NCBI GenBank assembly: GCA_017397835.1
Contig: JAFQHV010000036.1
Span: 1 to 40,179, forward strand
From: Oscillospiraceae bacterium
GTDB lineage: Bacteria; Bacillota; Clostridia; Oscillospirales; Oscillospiraceae
DNA length: 40,179 nucleotides
Reading direction: 5' to 3'
Below the pieces are notes generated by a model. It was not told where the DNA came from, ran no database searches, and saw only the letters and a list, made by a program, of their open reading frames with translations. The position numbers and the translations under genes are program-made. This document shows positions 1,848 through 40,000 of this stretch, piece by piece. Every line of letters starts with the position of its first letter. Position 1 is the stretch's first letter.

Positions 1848-2460
1848 CGAACTATACCTTGAAAACGCCATGTCGACCATGGGCACTATGCTTGACTACG
1901 CTGTGAATTACTGCCATTGGGAGATCGACGAGTTCTTTCAGGCATTCCTCGAAACACGCCTGTTCCCCCGACGATTTGAGAGTGGACATCCTGGTACAGT
2001 TGCCGGCAAGTCTGGAGTGGAATTGTACCTCTGTGTAACTGGAGAAAATGCGAAAAAGATTCCGGAGTATGTGGAGTTTGACCGCTCCCCGGAATACTGG
2101 GTCGGCTGGGCGCTGGCTTACTGCCAGTGGCATATGAACCGAACCTTCCGAGACATTACCGCCGTTGTAAAACCCAGCGAAATGCTCCGGTGGTATCCTA
2201 TTTACCATGAAATGGATATCCTCCATGTGGTAGATTCCATTGAGGAACGCATCAAAAAAACTCCCACCAATCTCGAACTCCTGCGTAAGCAAGCCGGATA
2301 CTCCCAAGCTCAGCTTGCGGAGTTGAGCACGGTTTCTCTGCGCTCTATCCAGATGTACGAGCAAAGAAACAACGATATCTCTAAGGCGCAATTCAATATC
2401 CTTAATGCGCTGGCGAAGGTGCTAAAATGCTCGGTCTATGATTTGGTGGACGGGGATTAG
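1828..2460 (+). CDS. HTH (Xre/Cro-C1) protein, putative antitoxin of the DUF3990 toxin
   Basis: The protein has 210 residues and two parts. The first roughly 145 residues form a helical domain with AVNYCHWEIDEFFQAFLET, VAGKSGVELYL and SPEYWVGWALAYCQWH, which I recognise as a conserved partner of DUF3990 proteins but cannot name. The last 60 residues are a classic Cro/C1 HTH (LLRKQAGYSQAQLAELS, then SLRSIQMYEQ). ATG 1828 is chosen because GGAGG lies 7-8 bases before it; a longer frame from 1795 lacks a site. The start lies inside the toxin gene. Expected role: neutralise the toxin and repress the operon at the two TATCATT palindromes. Confidence 0.8.
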   Translation: MEIRAYNELYLENAMSTMGTMLDYAVNYCHWEIDEFFQAFLETRLFPRRFESGHPGTVAGKSGVELYLCVTGENAKKIPEYVEFDRSPEYWVGWALAYCQWHMNRTFRDITAVVKPSEMLRWYPIYHEMDILHVVDSIEERIKKTPTNLELLRKQAGYSQAQLAELSTVSLRSIQMYEQRNNDISKAQFNILNALAKVLKCSVYDLVDGD

Positions 2461-2629
2461 AAATTACCACTAAGCCACTTGAAAAAACGCTGCGCATTGC
2501 TTCTTCCGGAACTTTCTCGATTATAAATCAAATTCTAATAACGGAATCATTTATATTCAACCCGCTAACAATATCACTGTTGCGGAGCGAAAAGGCTTCT
2601 CTCGCCTTAAAATTAGTCCTTATTGGGAA

Positions 2630-2664
2630 GAAGCAGTTGTTGCATTTTTTGCAACAACTGCTTC
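2630..2664. repeat. Perfect 14-bp inverted repeat
   Basis: Arms 2630-2643 and 2651-2664 (GAAGCAGTTGTTGC and its complement) around a 7-base T-rich loop. No T-run follows, so it is not an obvious terminator. It may be the end of a small element or a structural remnant. Confidence 0.6.
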
Positions 2665-2809
2665 AAAATGTTTTGAATGATGTGATGGTTAGTCGACACA
2701 AGAGAAATACTGGCCCTGATAATTTCCGTAACAAGCGATGGTCTAATCCACTATCAACCGATTTCAGAGCTTTTGGGGTCGAAGAGTCATTAAATAATCT
2801 GGCAAATTC

Positions 2810-2830
2810 TGCGCCGCAATAAACAATGAA
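2810..2830 (+). repeat. 21-bp repeat, copy 3
   Basis: One mismatch to copy 2. As with copy 1, a 17-bp-stem terminator hairpin with an AAGCGCCC-like outer arm follows (here after a 50-base gap). Confidence 0.75.
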
Positions 2831-2880
2831 CAAGGAGCTGTTGCATTATTCTGTTTTTGCATAAACAATCCGACTAATAA

Positions 2881-2921
2881 AAGGCGCCCTAACACACAAT
2901 CAAAGTGTGTTAGGGCGCCTT
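2881..2921. terminator. Bidirectional hairpin terminator
   Basis: Perfect 17-bp stem (2881-2897 with 2905-2921), 7-base loop, flanked by A residues on the left and T on the right. It lies downstream of the ATPase-nuclease gene on the minus strand, though 230 bases away. Confidence 0.75.
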
Positions 2922-3150
2922 TCAACTGACAGCTTTGGGCATTGTGCGAATTATACAATAGTTTCTTTGGCCCGAATGAATCTCGCAGCAGTTGCAGCTA
3001 CGTATATTCGACGGTGCTTAATCCGTACCGCAGCGATAGCAAAGTGCGCTGGTTTCCAGTCTGGCGCGGTCAGGAAGTTTGTTCTCCAATCACTCCTGTC
3101 GTGGGGTATGACTGTGAGTCAGCATTCCGGGTATGACGGAAGCACAAAAA

Positions 3151-5151
3151 CTATATGCCAAGTTTATCAAAGAGAATTCTATTGCGTTTCTTTGCATCGT
3201 ATATGATTTTGTCATACGACAAAATTTCGATATATGCATTCATTTTATCGTTGTACTTATAGTACCCCAGTTTATCAGGTGTTTGGGAGAAATCATGGAA
3301 ATCCAGAATCTGTTCTAACGTAGTCGTGATGTCACAAACTGCATATAAATAGAATTTGGTGTTTTGTCCAACTCTAATTACACGGCCATCTTTGTCCCTC
3401 TTTTTATTGGTCCTTAACTGCGTAACATACTCGTACAACTGATTAACGGGGTTGTTACTACCGTTGTAGTCATCTCGCATTGGACGCTTGAGTTCAAACA
3501 AGACAATGTTTTCGTATTCTCGGCCATCATTTTCTTCGTCAGAAACAGCGACTGGAGAATCAAGGATCATTATGTCTGTTCGATCTTCTTTGGGATTATT
3601 ATCAAACGGAATATCAGAAGAAATATAACTGCAGTAGGCAAGCTTTTCGTCCAGCAACCACAGGTTGTGATTGCTATAGGGGGTATCCACAGAGGTTGTT
3701 CTCATTGGATAAATGATATTATGGAGAAAGCTTTCCTTTTGAAACCGCCCATCATCATTTTTTCGTATTGCAAACTCCATCAAATCAAGGATGACTTTTC
3801 GATGCGCAACATATTCGGCTAACGCAGCGCCGTTAGCGCTGTTGATTTTTTCAATTTGCAATCCGAATTTCTGTATATACTCGTCTGAACTGATTATTCC
3901 TTTGTTCAGATCATTGAGAAGTTGGGTGTTTTCTTTGGTTGTCGTTCTATCGAAATCTCTCTTTATGCGATGAAGTTCGTCATCCAACTTATCTTCGCTT
4001 AAATTGGGTTTGATCTTCGAAATTGCCTCTGGCATATATTTCAGCAAATGGCGAAATTGCGGGGCTCTGTGTGTCACGTATTCTGTTATTCTCTTAATTT
4101 TTCCAGTAGCAATAGGATGAAGGTAGTCTTTGAGAAATTCATTTACCTCAACGACAACCGCTCGCATAATTTGATCCATAGTAATCATGTTTGCCATGCT
4201 ATCTAACGGACCACCATCAGGAATGTTAAAGGAAAGTCTATTCATATCAACGGACTCATCAAGATAACGCCCTCTCAAAACACCAACATACCAAAACCCA
4301 CTTTTTTCATAGATTTCACGATCAAGATCAGTAATATATTTGTCCAGTTCTTTTGTTTCTACTAAGCGGTTATGCGCACACAAATACAATTTGTTTCCGT
4401 TGATGGTTGATTCCTCGGCTTTTACATGAAGCAACTCGAAAGTTTCATCACCCAGGGTAATAATCTTACTGTTCTCTTCAGAGCGAATTTTTTCTTTAAA
4501 TACATGGTTTAAGTTATACGCTCCATCAATATCCTGTAAGATAATTTGAGGACAGTCATCAGAAATGAAATATACAAGGCAGTGCTGGATTATCCGCATA
4601 GCGATAGTAATGCCACGCTTCGGAACATTATCGGCATATGGCTTAATGTAGTTGAGCAATTTGACTGTTGTCTGATTATCATCATATCCAGTGCAGTCAG
4701 TAAGGGTATCGTTGATTTCAGAGTTAGAGATGGAGAACTCAAAGGTGCGTTTTACATATCCGTCTCCCTCGGAATAGACACTTTCTATTTCAGCTTTCTC
4801 AAAAGCGATTAACCAAGAAAAACGTCCAACGCCTTTTCCACCAATTTGAGCTTTGTATGTTGAGTCCGATTCCATAAATGAAGCAATGTTTGCTTCATTG
4901 AATCCAATTCCGTTATCAACGATTTCAAAAGACTGGATCTGGGGCAATTCGCCAGTACCATCCATTACAAACTGTTCATCCCGAAGGACTTTGATGACAA
5001 TCCGGCCTTCAAAAGACGGAGTAGTGGATTTTCGTTCGTCAATGGCATGAATGGCATTCACGATAGCCTCAAAAAGGGGCACAAGTGGCTGATTCTTAGG
5101 AAGATTGAAGTTCTTTACACGGCCCCGTATATTGATTGAAAACGGTCTCAT
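3151..5151 (-). CDS. GHKL ATPase fused to a PD-(D/E)xK-like nuclease domain, candidate defence gene
   Basis: The protein has 666 residues and no membrane span. The N-terminus is a Bergerat (GHKL/MORC-like) ATPase: Asn box EAIVNA at 28-33 with a Glu and Asn in place, DNGIGF at 79-84, and glycine lid GGKGVGRF at 104-111. The C-terminus has a nuclease signature: Asp526 in RTDIMILD, ELK at 553-555, then QLYEYVTQLR near 568-577, matching the D, ExK and QxxxY pattern. The middle is helical and charged. GHKL ATPases joined to restriction-type nucleases occur in bacterial restriction and anti-phage loci; I cannot name a specific system. AAGGAGG lies 10 bases before ATG 5151. It stands alone on the minus strand, beside a toxin-antitoxin pair and tRNA genes, in AT-rich DNA. 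Confidence 0.8.
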   Translation of the reverse strand: MRPFSINIRGRVKNFNLPKNQPLVPLFEAIVNAIHAIDERKSTTPSFEGRIVIKVLRDEQFVMDGTGELPQIQSFEIVDNGIGFNEANIASFMESDSTYKAQIGGKGVGRFSWLIAFEKAEIESVYSEGDGYVKRTFEFSISNSEINDTLTDCTGYDDNQTTVKLLNYIKPYADNVPKRGITIAMRIIQHCLVYFISDDCPQIILQDIDGAYNLNHVFKEKIRSEENSKIITLGDETFELLHVKAEESTINGNKLYLCAHNRLVETKELDKYITDLDREIYEKSGFWYVGVLRGRYLDESVDMNRLSFNIPDGGPLDSMANMITMDQIMRAVVVEVNEFLKDYLHPIATGKIKRITEYVTHRAPQFRHLLKYMPEAISKIKPNLSEDKLDDELHRIKRDFDRTTTKENTQLLNDLNKGIISSDEYIQKFGLQIEKINSANGAALAEYVAHRKVILDLMEFAIRKNDDGRFQKESFLHNIIYPMRTTSVDTPYSNHNLWLLDEKLAYCSYISSDIPFDNNPKEDRTDIMILDSPVAVSDEENDGREYENIVLFELKRPMRDDYNGSNNPVNQLYEYVTQLRTNKKRDKDGRVIRVGQNTKFYLYAVCDITTTLEQILDFHDFSQTPDKLGYYKYNDKMNAYIEILSYDKIIYDAKKRNRILFDKLGI

Positions 5152-35539: not shown

Positions 35540-35598
35540 CCCGTTTCCTCCTAAAACATCACCTTTGCAAGGTTTCCTGCAATTATTATCCATTTCAT

Positions 35599-35627
35599 AT
35601 TTTACCTCGCTGTGTACGAATTGTAAA
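35599..35627 (-). promoter_or_regulatory. Promoter of the lipoprotein gene
   Basis: Minus strand TTTACA (35622-35627), 17-base spacer, TAAAAT (35599-35604). Confidence 0.65.
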
Positions 35628-35771
35628 TAAATATTAAACATACCAAAGGGCGCAAAGGTTGGGCTTCTCGAACAAAAACAGCCGATTATGGAAAATAATA
35701 CAAAAAAGCCCAGCATGAAAAAAAGTGTTTTGTAGGTGCAAACAAACATTTTTTCTGCAAGATTTTGACTA
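35628..35771. other. Intergenic stretch between the lipoprotein gene and gdhA
   Basis: AT-rich DNA between two divergent promoters. No gene or terminator is visible. Confidence 0.5.
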
Positions 35772-35800
35772 TTGACTTGCAAATTTCCTCGTGTTATAAC
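35772..35800 (+). promoter_or_regulatory. Promoter of the gdhA pair
   Basis: TTGACT (35772-35777), 17-base spacer, TATAAC (35795-35800). A further TATAAT follows 3 bases later and may serve as an alternative -10. Confidence 0.75.
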
Positions 35801-35824
35801 ATATAATATAATTTAACAGGGTAA

Positions 35825-37204
<1,380 letters not shown>

Positions 37205-37214
37205 GGAGGCTTCC

Positions 37215-38558
37215 ATGAACGAGTATGTTGCCCGCGTTCGGGAAAACCTGAACCGCCTCTACGCACACGAGCCGGAGTATCTCCAATCCGTACTGACCTG
37301 GCTGGATCTGATCGAGCCCGCCGTGGACGATCCCCGGTACGAGCAGTTGGATCTGCTCAGCCGCATGGTGGAACCGGAGCGTATGTTCTGCTTTTTGGTC
37401 CCTTGGGTAGATGACAAGGGCGTGGCCCATACCAACCACGGGTTCCGTGCCCAGTTCAACAGCGCCATCGGCCCCTATAAGGGCGGTCTGCGCTTCCACC
37501 CCAGTGTGAACGCTTCCGTGGTGAAGTTTTTGGGTTTCGAGCAGACCTTCAAAAACGCCCTGACCGGTCTGCCCATCGGCGGTGCCGGCGGTGGTGCCGA
37601 CTTCGACCCCCGCGGCAAGAGCAATCGCGAGATCATGCGCTTCTGCCAAAGCTTTATGACCGCCATGTACCGCTACATCGGTGCCGACACCGACGTCCCC
37701 GCCGGCGACATCGGCGTGGGTGCCCGCGAGATCGGCTATCTGTACGGTGCATACAAGCGCTTGGCCGGCCGGGCCCAAACCAGCGTGCTGACAGGCAAGG
37801 GCCTGTCTTACGGCGGCAGCCAGGTCCGTATCGAGGCCGCCGGCTACGGCGCGATCTACTTCCTGGACCGCATGCTGACCCAGCACAACGACACCATCGA
37901 GGGCAAGCGCATTGCCATCTCCGGTTTCGGCAACCTGTCCTGGGGCGTGTGCCGCAAGGCTGCCCAGTTGGGTGCCAAGGTGGTCACTCTGTCCGGCCCC
38001 GACGGCTATATCTACGATCCCGACGGCATTACCACCAAGGAAAAATTCGACTTTATGGTGGAAATGCGGATGAGCGGTCAGGACAGGGTCCAAGCCTACG
38101 CCGACAAGTTCGGTTTGGAATTTCACGCCGGAAAACGCCCCTGGGAGGTCCCCGTGGACGTTGTCATCCCCTGCGCTACGCAAAACGAGCTGGACGTGGA
38201 GGATGCGGTGCGCATTTTGGCCAACAACGTCAAGTACTACGTGGAGGCATCCAATATGCCCGCCACGGCCGAGGCGCTCAAACTTCTGCGCCTGAGTCCC
38301 CAGATCCTCACCGTGGGTGCCAAGGCCTCCGGTTCCGGCGGCGTGGCCGTGTCCGCGCTGGAAATGGCGCAGAACAGCGTCCGCTACAGCTGGAGCCATG
38401 AAGAAGTGGAGCAGCGCCTGCGTGACATCATGAACGCCACCTACGACGCCTCTGCCGCCGCCGCGGAGCAGTACGGCTTTGCCAACGATCTGGTCGCCGG
38501 TACCGCCATCGCCGCATTCAAGCGCATCGCTCAGGCCATGCTGGCTCAGGGTCTGTAA
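37215..38558 (+). CDS. Glutamate dehydrogenase paralogue lacking the catalytic lysine
   Basis: The 447-residue protein is clearly homologous to the gene before it ([20 protein letters not shown] is identical in both). Lys89, Lys113 and Asp165 are retained, but the segment holding catalytic Lys125 reads LPIGGAGGGADFDPRG instead of [16 protein letters not shown], so position 125 is Gly. The dinucleotide motif remains (ISGFGNLSWGVCRKA). The frame is intact with no sign of decay. By family knowledge a Lys125 change abolishes glutamate dehydrogenase activity, so it is probably a regulatory or hetero-oligomer subunit, or it has another reaction. AAGGAGG overlaps the gdhA stop and lies 5 bases before ATG 37215: the two are co-transcribed and probably made in comparable amounts. 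Confidence 0.93.
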   Translation: MNEYVARVRENLNRLYAHEPEYLQSVLTWLDLIEPAVDDPRYEQLDLLSRMVEPERMFCFLVPWVDDKGVAHTNHGFRAQFNSAIGPYKGGLRFHPSVNASVVKFLGFEQTFKNALTGLPIGGAGGGADFDPRGKSNREIMRFCQSFMTAMYRYIGADTDVPAGDIGVGAREIGYLYGAYKRLAGRAQTSVLTGKGLSYGGSQVRIEAAGYGAIYFLDRMLTQHNDTIEGKRIAISGFGNLSWGVCRKAAQLGAKVVTLSGPDGYIYDPDGITTKEKFDFMVEMRMSGQDRVQAYADKFGLEFHAGKRPWEVPVDVVIPCATQNELDVEDAVRILANNVKYYVEASNMPATAEALKLLRLSPQILTVGAKASGSGGVAVSALEMAQNSVRYSWSHEEVEQRLRDIMNATYDASAAAAEQYGFANDLVAGTAIAAFKRIAQAMLAQGL

Positions 38559-38564
38559 CCAACC

Positions 38565-38604
38565 AAAAAAGTTCCCGCGCACCGTGGTGCGCGGGAACTT
38601 TTTT
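38565..38604. terminator. Bidirectional terminator after the gdhA pair
   Basis: Perfect 19-bp stem (38565-38583 with 38586-38604), 2-base loop, A6 left and T6 right. It also holds the stop codon of the converging glycosyltransferase gene. Confidence 0.92.
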
Positions 38605-40000
38605 ATTCTTCTTTCCACCAATTTCGCAACGCCATCGCCCCCAGAACAAAAACACAGGGCATCAGGAAGTACCGGTAGCGCACCTGTACCTCCACGATCA
38701 GGTGGACGGCGTAGTAGCCGCACAGCAGCAGCACAGGGACCAGATCCGCTCCGGTCTGCTCCCGCTTGATCAAGCGGCGCAAAACCCCCGCAAACGCCAG
38801 CGCAAAGGCCAGCAGGTAAAGCCCCTTTTCAGCCTGCGCCAAAAGAAGCTGCAGACTGTTCCAGTTCACGCCCGGCAGCGCTTCTCCCTCCGGATCCAGA
38901 TGGCCGAACCCCCAGTACAGATCTTCATACCCGGCCCACATGCCGATGCTTTTGCGCAGAGCCAGTCCGACCAGCTTTCCGGGGCCAACCGACAGCCGTT
39001 GGGTCACTTCCTGCCGCATCGCCGCATCCACCCCCTCGGGATCGGCGGCAGAGGGAACGATGAATCGCTCATAGTCCCCACGGTTCCATTGTCCGTCGGA
39101 TTCCTGATTCAGTCCAACCACAAACTTCCACATGGGCTGGTTGTTGGCAAGGCCGTTGGGATTGATCCCGCTGCCCACGATCAGGGCGGACAGCAGCATT
39201 CCGCACAGGAAATAGCTCGCCGCCATGCCCAAGCCACGCAGCAGTGTTTTCCAATTTCGCCCGGTCAAGGCCCGCAGCACCAACCAGATCACACAGGCCA
39301 ACAGCGGAATGATACCGATGGGCCGCATGGCATTGCCCAGCGCGATCAGGGCGCCCGCCTCAACGGTGCGGGTCCAGGTCAAGCCGCTGCCGCTCATCAG
39401 CACGTAAATACCGGCGTAGAGCAGAAACACCGACAAATGCTGGTTGGTCAGCACCCCGGCAAGAAACAGGGGCGCAGGATACAGCGCATACAGCACGCTG
39501 ACTGCCGCAGCCGCCTTTCCGTTTGTTAACCGGGCCGCAATGCGATAGACCAGCACCGCCGTCCCCGCCATCCACAGGGCGTTGAGCAGCTGCAGCGGCA
39601 GCAGGCTGCCACCGAACAGACGAATAACCAAGGCCTCATAGGCCACAAAAGCCGACTGATAGGCCCAGTTGAAAAAGTAGACATCCTGCAAATACCCATG
39701 GTCACCCCGGGCCAGCTGAACCGCCGCCTGATGCATAGTATCAAAATCCTGCACCGGCTGACTCTTCAGCCATAGGATAAATACAAGGGCCAAAACAAAG
39801 CGCAAAAGGAACAAGCCGATCTCAAACCCCTTGCCCGGCTTCACAAACCGGAACGCAAGCCACACGACCGCCGCTCCGGCAGCCACAGCCAGGGGGATCA
39901 CCAGGCTGTACGTTCTGTTCTGCAGCAAGATCACGGCGCAAATCAACAGGGCGATCGCGGTACAAACCCGCGCCCCAAATCGTCCGGTTTTACTCAGCAT
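38603..40000 (-). CDS. Membrane glycosyltransferase, GT39/ArnT-like
   Basis: A 465-residue integral membrane protein with about ten or more spans and little soluble sequence outside a loop at about 270-375. After the third span, the loop reads SQPVQDFDTMHQAAVQLARGD, with an acidic pair in the place where ArnT and protein mannosyltransferases keep the catalytic Asp; VYFFNWAYQSAFVAYEAL follows, and TNQHLSVFLLYAGIYVL and LGNAMRPIGIIPL are typical of polyprenyl-phosphate-sugar glycosyltransferases. Donor and acceptor are unknown. AAAGGAGGG lies 5 bases before ATG 40000. It is a single-gene unit with its own promoter. Confidence 0.82.
   Translation of the reverse strand: MLSKTGRFGARVCTAIALLICAVILLQNRTYSLVIPLAVAAGAAVVWLAFRFVKPGKGFEIGLFLLRFVLALVFILWLKSQPVQDFDTMHQAAVQLARGDHGYLQDVYFFNWAYQSAFVAYEALVIRLFGGSLLPLQLLNALWMAGTAVLVYRIAARLTNGKAAAAVSVLYALYPAPLFLAGVLTNQHLSVFLLYAGIYVLMSGSGLTWTRTVEAGALIALGNAMRPIGIIPLLACVIWLVLRALTGRNWKTLLRGLGMAASYFLCGMLLSALIVGSGINPNGLANNQPMWKFVVGLNQESDGQWNRGDYERFIVPSAADPEGVDAAMRQEVTQRLSVGPGKLVGLALRKSIGMWAGYEDLYWGFGHLDPEGEALPGVNWNSLQLLLAQAEKGLYLLAFALAFAGVLRRLIKREQTGADLVPVLLLCGYYAVHLIVEVQVRYRYFLMPCVFVLGAMALRNWWKEE

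What the first reader, a model, noticed from the sequence alone, without database searches (positions are those of the whole stretch)
37215..38558. Pseudo-glutamate dehydrogenase co-translated with an active one
Seen: the second gdhA copy keeps Lys89, Lys113, Asp165 and the dinucleotide fold, but the catalytic Lys125 is Gly in a changed loop (GGAGGGADFDP for [11 protein letters not shown]). The frame is intact, the ribosome site strong, and it follows the first copy by 10 bases. Known: Lys125 of the Clostridium symbiosum enzyme is essential for catalysis. Inferred: a conserved dead partner that tunes the active hexamer, as other pseudoenzymes do, or an enzyme with a new substrate.
Basis: partly seen in the sequence, partly recalled or inferred. 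Interest (0 to 1): 0.75.

Follow-up and report, generated by a model that had tools for sequence, protein, structure and literature searches.

The report
Conserved catalytically dead glutamate dehydrogenase partner
Some bacteria of one family carry, directly behind the gene for an ordinary glutamate dehydrogenase, a second well-kept relative that has lost its key catalytic residue but kept its glutamate-binding pocket, so it is probably a sensor or regulatory partner rather than an enzyme.

Summary
The second gene (37215-38558, GDH2) lies 10 nt behind an intact gdhA (GDH1) and has Gly where catalysis needs Lys125. It is no recent copy of GDH1: it is 53% identical to it and groups with NAD-type (Clostridium symbiosum-like) enzymes. 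Codons and dN/dS (median 0.20) speak against sequencing error and decay. Of 107 positions invariant in comparison GDHs, GDH2 lost eight (K125, G190, T209, V241, N373, A374, A430, N431); four control clades lost 0-1. T209 and N373 match nicotinamide-site residues. Glutamate-pocket residues are kept in 43 of 43. Best reading: a pseudoenzyme that still binds glutamate or 2-oxoglutarate and acts on GDH1, probably in a mixed hexamer. Physical partnership is inferred; one test of it was negative and one weak. Thermus thermophilus GdhA/GdhB is a known precedent for an inactive regulatory subunit, so this is a new variant of a known kind, found so far in one bacterial family only.

The parts
35858..37204 (+). 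GDH1: canonical glutamate dehydrogenase with the residues of NADP-type enzymes (Ser at the positions of F238 and P262), 448 aa, catalytic Lys present
37205..37209 (+). GGAGG, ribosome-binding site of GDH2
   Evidence: G-rich sites also precede GDH2 in most of the other loci
37215..38558 (+). GDH2: glutamate dehydrogenase homologue without the catalytic Lys, 447 aa
37575..37610 (+). Changed catalytic loop IGGAGGGADFDP (residues 121-132); codon 125 (GGC, Gly) at 37587-37589
37839..37841 (+). Codon 209, Ala in place of the Thr invariant in the comparison GDHs
38331..38336 (+). Codons 373-374, Gly-Ser in place of the invariant Asn-Ala
38565..38604 (+). Terminator-like hairpin with T run behind GDH2; suggests a unit of two genes
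   Evidence: consensus scan of 35550-38800; 5 terminator-like sites found, 3.7 expected from shuffles; this one has the longest stem, 18 pairs

Best explanation
GDH2 is a pseudoenzyme. Shown from sequence: it lost the catalytic lysine and two residues of the nicotinamide site, kept the residues that hold glutamate/2-oxoglutarate, is under purifying selection, and sits directly behind one clade of NADP-type GDH1. Inferred: it cannot carry out the GDH reaction; the two proteins are made together and assemble (a mixed hexamer of the usual GDH kind); GDH2 subunits bind glutamate or 2-oxoglutarate, and perhaps the adenosine part of the coenzyme, without turnover; and closing of their cleft on the ligand changes the activity of neighbouring GDH1 subunits. 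It would act as a built-in glutamate/2-oxoglutarate sensor.
For: 43 of 43 GDH2 rows lack Lys125 and 43 of 43 follow a GDH1 on the same strand, 39 of 43 with a gap of 10-16 nt. Eight of 107 positions that are at least 99% invariant in the comparison set are lost (under half of the GDH2 rows keep the residue), among them K125, T209 and N373; the same count for four other clades gives 0 of 86, 1 of 117, 1 of 110 and 0 of 107. The pocket K89, Q110, K113, D165, T193, R205, V377, S380 is kept in 43 of 43. dN/dS medians 0.196 (GDH2) and 0.175 (GDH1) over the 534 of 630 pairs of 36 genomes with dS between 0.05 and 1 in both genes. GDH2 is one clade, 100/100, on a long stem, in a tree with 20 of the 43. 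In a sample of 400 family genomes all 14 GDH1 that are 78% or more identical to the window's come with a GDH2, one of these disrupted. Literature, passages only: the ligand pocket of Thermococcus GDH, whose residues I match to K89, K113, K125, R205, S380 (PMC11096400); the nicotinamide site of Arabidopsis GDH1, which I match by spacing to N347, N373, T209, N240 (PMC7326016); the catalytic Lys (PMC12612887, PMC8784811); the precedent of T. thermophilus GdhA/GdhB (PMC9570180).
Against: No physical or biochemical data. No excess convergence of GDH2 towards GDH1 (5 of 37 comparable changed sites, against 5 of 21 and 7 of 35 in control groups). The nucleotide-binding domain of GDH2 is not relaxed relative to domain I (median dN ratio 1.43, against 2.00 in GDH1; domain limits recalled), so it may still do something with a nucleotide. 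Two genomes (G041, G038; 65% and 85% complete) have a GDH1 nested in the paired clade and no GDH2 beside it or among the matches, so GDH1 can probably live without it.
Confidence: 0.55

Rival explanations
1. GDH2 is an enzyme with a different reaction: the glutamate-like pocket is kept, but Lys125, Thr209 and Asn373 were swapped for residues that suit another chemistry or coenzyme position.
For: The changes are specific and mostly fixed (A209 and G373 in 43 of 43; Y112 in 42 of 43); G237, G239 and N240 of the nucleotide fold are kept in 43 of 43; that domain is not relaxed.
Against: Loss of Lys125 and of two nicotinamide-site residues points to loss rather than redesign of hydride transfer. 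The residue at 125 varies (S/A/G), as expected for 'not Lys' rather than for a new catalytic group. Other near-fixed new residues (Y112, D431) are absent from the window's own copy.
Confidence: 0.17
2. GDH2 is a free-standing ligand-binding or moonlighting protein (its own homohexamer) that senses glutamate but does not assemble with GDH1; the operon only gives joint expression.
For: No convergence with GDH1; GDH2 derives from a different subfamily, NAD-type.
Against: The adjacency holds in 43 of 43 loci, which span six genus codes and one named contig. Paired GDH1 differ from unpaired ones at 23 sites, though this may only reflect shared descent.
Confidence: 0.18
3. GDH2 is still a slow or ordinary GDH; another residue stands in for Lys125.
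For: Asp165 and the substrate pocket are kept; NCBIfam calls the window's GDH2 NADP-specific GDH above the curated cut-off (607 against 536 bits).
Against: The loop strings of the 43 rows hold no Lys; Thr209 and Asn373 are lost too; 98 of 98 comparison rows keep all three.
Confidence: 0.06
4. GDH2 is a decaying duplicate or an assembly artefact.
For: One of the 16 genomes with GDH2 in the family sample (G509) has a disrupted gene; the window's copy departs from the clade at 112, 191, 241, 430, 431.
Against: dN/dS about 0.2; the pair is present in a one-contig genome, G411; no stops inside the listed GDH2 matches.
Confidence: 0.02

Closest known systems
Thermus thermophilus GdhA (inactive, regulatory) with GdhB (catalytic), PDB 3AOE
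   Same: An inactive GDH homologue working with an active one; there a hexamer of four GdhA and two GdhB, activated by leucine (PMC9570180, passages).
   Different: GDH2 belongs to the C. symbiosum subfamily (683 bits to 1bgv against 192 and 163 to the two 3aoe chains). Which residues Thermus GdhA has lost I could not read. A mixed hexamer and a leucine effect are untested here.
Clostridium symbiosum NAD-dependent GDH (1BGV/1HRD)
   Same: Closest solved structure, aligned over residues 3-447 with a single one-residue gap; same glutamate pocket; same F238, P262, D263.
   Different: GDH2 lacks K125, T209, N373 and A374.
GDH1, the NADP-type GdhA of the same operon
   Same: Same family (Pfam PF02812 and PF00208).
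   Different: 53% identity, separate clade, full catalytic set.

Membership tests
Glu/Leu/Phe/Val dehydrogenase family | Both Pfam domains PF02812 and PF00208 over cut-off | tested here: met
   167.4 and 240.6 bits, cut-offs 25.3 and 23.4
Active glutamate dehydrogenase | Catalytic Lys (C. symbiosum 125) | tested here: not met
   0 of 43 GDH2 rows; 98 of 98 comparison rows
Active glutamate dehydrogenase | Asp165 and glutamate pocket K89, Q110, K113, R205, S380 | tested here: met
   43 of 43
Active glutamate dehydrogenase | Nicotinamide-site residues T209, N240, N347, N373 | tested here: not met
   N240 and N347 kept, T209 and N373 lost in 43 of 43; roles from PMC7326016 passages, matched by spacing
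Thermus GdhA-type regulatory subunit | Catalytically inactive | not testable with these tools
   predicted from sequence only
Thermus GdhA-type regulatory subunit | Mixed hexamer with the active GDH | not testable with these tools
   gene pairing only; convergence test negative; structure prediction never ran
Thermus GdhA-type regulatory subunit | Sequence kinship with the Thermus chains | tested here: not met
   nearest is 1bgv, Thermus chains far lower

The most novel reading that the evidence does not exclude
A family of pseudoenzymes with an intact glutamate pocket works as a built-in sensor subunit in bacteria that are probably Oscillospiraceae: an NAD-type GDH that lost hydride-transfer chemistry (K125, T209, N373) but kept the ligand pocket was recruited into the operon of an NADP-type GDH, with which it forms a mixed hexamer tuned by glutamate or 2-oxoglutarate. 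This would be an evolution of regulatory GDH subunits separate from that in Thermus.
Probability: 0.4. Interest if true: 0.7.

Novelty: new variant of a known kind. Interest (0 to 1): 0.55.

Why it matters
GDH sits at the crossing of carbon and nitrogen metabolism. A conserved dead paralogue with an intact glutamate pocket gives a clean two-gene system for asking how pseudoenzyme subunits regulate an active enzyme. It also exposes an annotation trap: all 42 GDH2 proteins scanned match NCBIfam's NADP-GDH model NF006929, and the window's copy passes its curated cut-off, so pipelines may count it as an active enzyme in metabolic models.

Tried and rejected
Convergence test: at 47 sites changed between GDH2 and its NAD-type sisters, GDH2 matches GDH1 at 5 of 37 defined sites, against 5 of 21 (Bacteroidota) and 7 of 35 (Ruminococcus-type) in control groups, so no signal.

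Loss test: two GDH1 without GDH2 (L173, L174) nest in the paired clade, have long branches, and changed 5 of 19 and 4 of 19 pair-specific sites, against a mean of 0.5 in 38 paired rows. But one paired row (L008) also changed 5 of 21, the two rows are sisters, and L173 changed generally conserved sites too (8 of 189, mean 0.55; L174 0 of 189). Suggestive only. Used: 38 of 43 paired and 19 of 20 fetched unpaired GDH1; the rest failed the cut of 64% identity or 400 residues. That tree was a quick one.

Loop-pattern scan of 400 family genomes: 59 had a match. Of 30 loci read, 7 are GDH and all 7 are GDH2; 23 are other frames or proteins. Four more matches were fetched and read, none is GDH. The other matches were not read as such, so K125-less GDHs outside the GDH2 clade were not searched for exhaustively.

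Order scan: 2 of 394 genomes pass 1e-200, the window's own and G142 of the same family.

Papers: the listings showed no report of this pair; only passages of the papers named were seen. The Thermus structure paper (JBC 2011) is not held. The Pelobacter paper (PMC3543383, passages) does not bear on it; PMC12364357 and PMC4079599 (passages) added only references.

Structure prediction of GDH2 never ran: the machine was busy at all nine tries. So there is no model and no fold search.

Full report
Observation. The window holds a two-gene unit: GDH1 (35858-37204) and GDH2 (37215-38558), 10 nt apart, GGAGG before the second start, a hairpin with a T run behind it (38565-38604), and long minus-strand ORFs on both sides. 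GDH2 has Gly at position 125, where GDH1 has Lys. From about residue 39 on, GDH2 numbering equals that of Clostridium symbiosum GDH in the alignment. NCBIfam names both proteins NADP-specific GDH.

Spread. A search of 64 genomes of the genus with GDH2 gave a clean gap: matches at 70-100% identity in 30 genomes (G012 with two copies; G034 split over contig ends), and the rest at 60% or less, apart from a 40-residue piece (65%) at a contig end in G055. Among 400 genomes of the family, 80% or more complete, 15 have full-length GDH2 and one (G509) a disrupted one, in six genus codes of 92; the other matches reach at most 62% (matches above E 1e-100 were not asked for). In 394 genomes of the order two pass 1e-200: the window's own and G142, same family. 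One more GDH2 came from a named contig, CALWXA010000032.1, an uncultured Oscillospiraceae bacterium (only the best 80 of at least 592 relatives were kept there). G411 is a single-contig genome with the pair and two other GDH genes, so the pair is not an assembly artefact.

Conservation of the loss. Left out: the second copy in G012, the small pieces in G034 and G055, and the disrupted gene of G509. Residue 125 is Ser in 21, Ala in 18, Gly in 4, Lys in none; Ala124 precedes it in all 43. All 43 have a GDH1 on the same strand just upstream; the gap is 10-16 nt in 39 and 24, 53, 170 and 302 nt in four. GDH1 has Lys in the 40 rows that cover the site; three rows are cut. The codons for residue 125 are all at least two changes from a Lys codon.

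Which other residues changed. The comparison set is 98 GDH rows from loci without GDH2 (97 distinct, two under 400 aa) and 43 GDH1 rows. In it 107 positions are at least 99% invariant. GDH2 has lost eight (under half of the rows keep the residue): K125, G190, T209, V241, N373, A374, A430, N431. As a control I did the same for four other clades, each against the rest without GDH2: GDH1 lost 0 of 86, the NAD-type sisters 1 of 117, a Bacteroidota set 1 of 110, a Ruminococcus-type set 0 of 107. A209 and G373 are fixed in 43 of 43. Kept in 43 of 43: K89, G90, G91, Q110, K113, G164, D165, T193, R205, G237, G239, N240, N347, G376, V377, S380; A163 in 42. In Thermococcus profundus GDH the ligand pocket is Lys69, Lys93, Lys105, Arg187, Ser351, with a water at Lys105 needed for the reaction (PMC11096400, passages); by order and spacing I match these to K89, K113, K125, R205, S380. 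In Arabidopsis GDH1 Asn312, Asn337, Thr185 and Asn216 make the nicotinamide site (PMC7326016, passages); by spacing these are N347, N373, T209, N240. The catalytic lysine is named in PMC12612887 and PMC8784811 (passages). So GDH2 lost the catalytic lysine and two of four nicotinamide-site residues and kept the glutamate pocket. Residue roles in C. symbiosum beyond these passages are recalled.

Selection and descent. Median dN/dS is 0.196 for GDH2 and 0.175 for GDH1 over the 534 of 630 pairs (36 of 43 loci, those with both genes near full length) with dS between 0.05 and 1 in both genes. In a tree of 90 rows chosen by me (20 of 43 GDH2, 11 GDH1 partners, 59 of 98 comparison rows) GDH2 is one clade (100/100) on a long stem (0.5), beside NAD-type enzymes mostly of the same family (that fork is weak, 83/27); GDH1 partners form another clade (100/100). 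GDH2 and these sisters share F238, P262 and D263 (43 of 43 and 20 of 20), the residues of the NAD-specific C. symbiosum enzyme whose change shifts preference towards NADPH (PMC3157743, passages), while GDH1 has Ser at the first two (41 of 41 and 42 of 42 covered rows). One loss of the Lys fits this tree.

Bond between the two genes. In the family sample the GDH1 matches split at 78% or more versus 74% or less identity to the window's GDH1; all 14 above the split have a GDH2, one disrupted. GDH2 also occurs in G424 and G397, where only part of GDH1 was in the locus. Against the bond: GDH1 without GDH2 in G041 and G038, nested in the paired clade; these genomes are 65% and 85% complete. Their GDH1 changed 5 and 4 of 19 pair-specific sites against 0.5 on average in 38 paired rows, but one paired row also changed 5 of 21, and one of the two changed conserved sites generally. 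A convergence test was negative. The nucleotide-binding domain of GDH2 is not relaxed relative to domain I (domain limits recalled).

Interpretation. The sequence facts make loss of the GDH reaction very likely (about 0.9, my judgement) and a conserved non-catalytic role likely. That the role is played inside a mixed hexamer with GDH1, with glutamate or 2-oxoglutarate as the sensed ligand, is inference (0.55 for the best explanation). The nearest precedent is the T. thermophilus hexamer of four inactive GdhA and two GdhB subunits (PMC9570180, passages). By sequence GDH2 is nearer the C. symbiosum enzyme than the Thermus chains, so if it works alike it does so by separate descent.

Verdict. A real, conserved pseudo-GDH lineage, for which the searches listed no report (open-licence library only); new variant of a known kind; interest 0.55.

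Noticed in passing
window 37215-38558: The window's own GDH2 departs from the clade's common residues at 112 (F), 191 (V), 241 (L), 430 (T) and 431 (A), although relatives 90-91% identical (L004, L005) keep them; dN is 0.04-0.05 at dS about 0.5 to them.
   Followed up: partly
L223 (G509:C107), about 1860-3030: GDH2 of this genome is disrupted: pieces matching residues 1-92 and 150-447 lie in different frames with the part between missing, behind an intact GDH1. Assembly error or decay cannot be told apart.
   Followed up: partly
L173 (G041:C85), about 3097-4590: Behind the unpaired GDH1 lie ORFs that look like a small heat-shock protein and, on the other strand, an IS-type transposase (my reading of the translation, no search).
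   Followed up: no
L003 (G000:C18:47782-48297): The genome's third relative has a 364-aa open frame, looks like a Leu/Val/Phe-type dehydrogenase by size and motif (my reading), and has its loop Lys.
   Followed up: no
G012:C18 and G012:C27: This genome carries two copies of the GDH1-GDH2 pair on different contigs.
   Followed up: no
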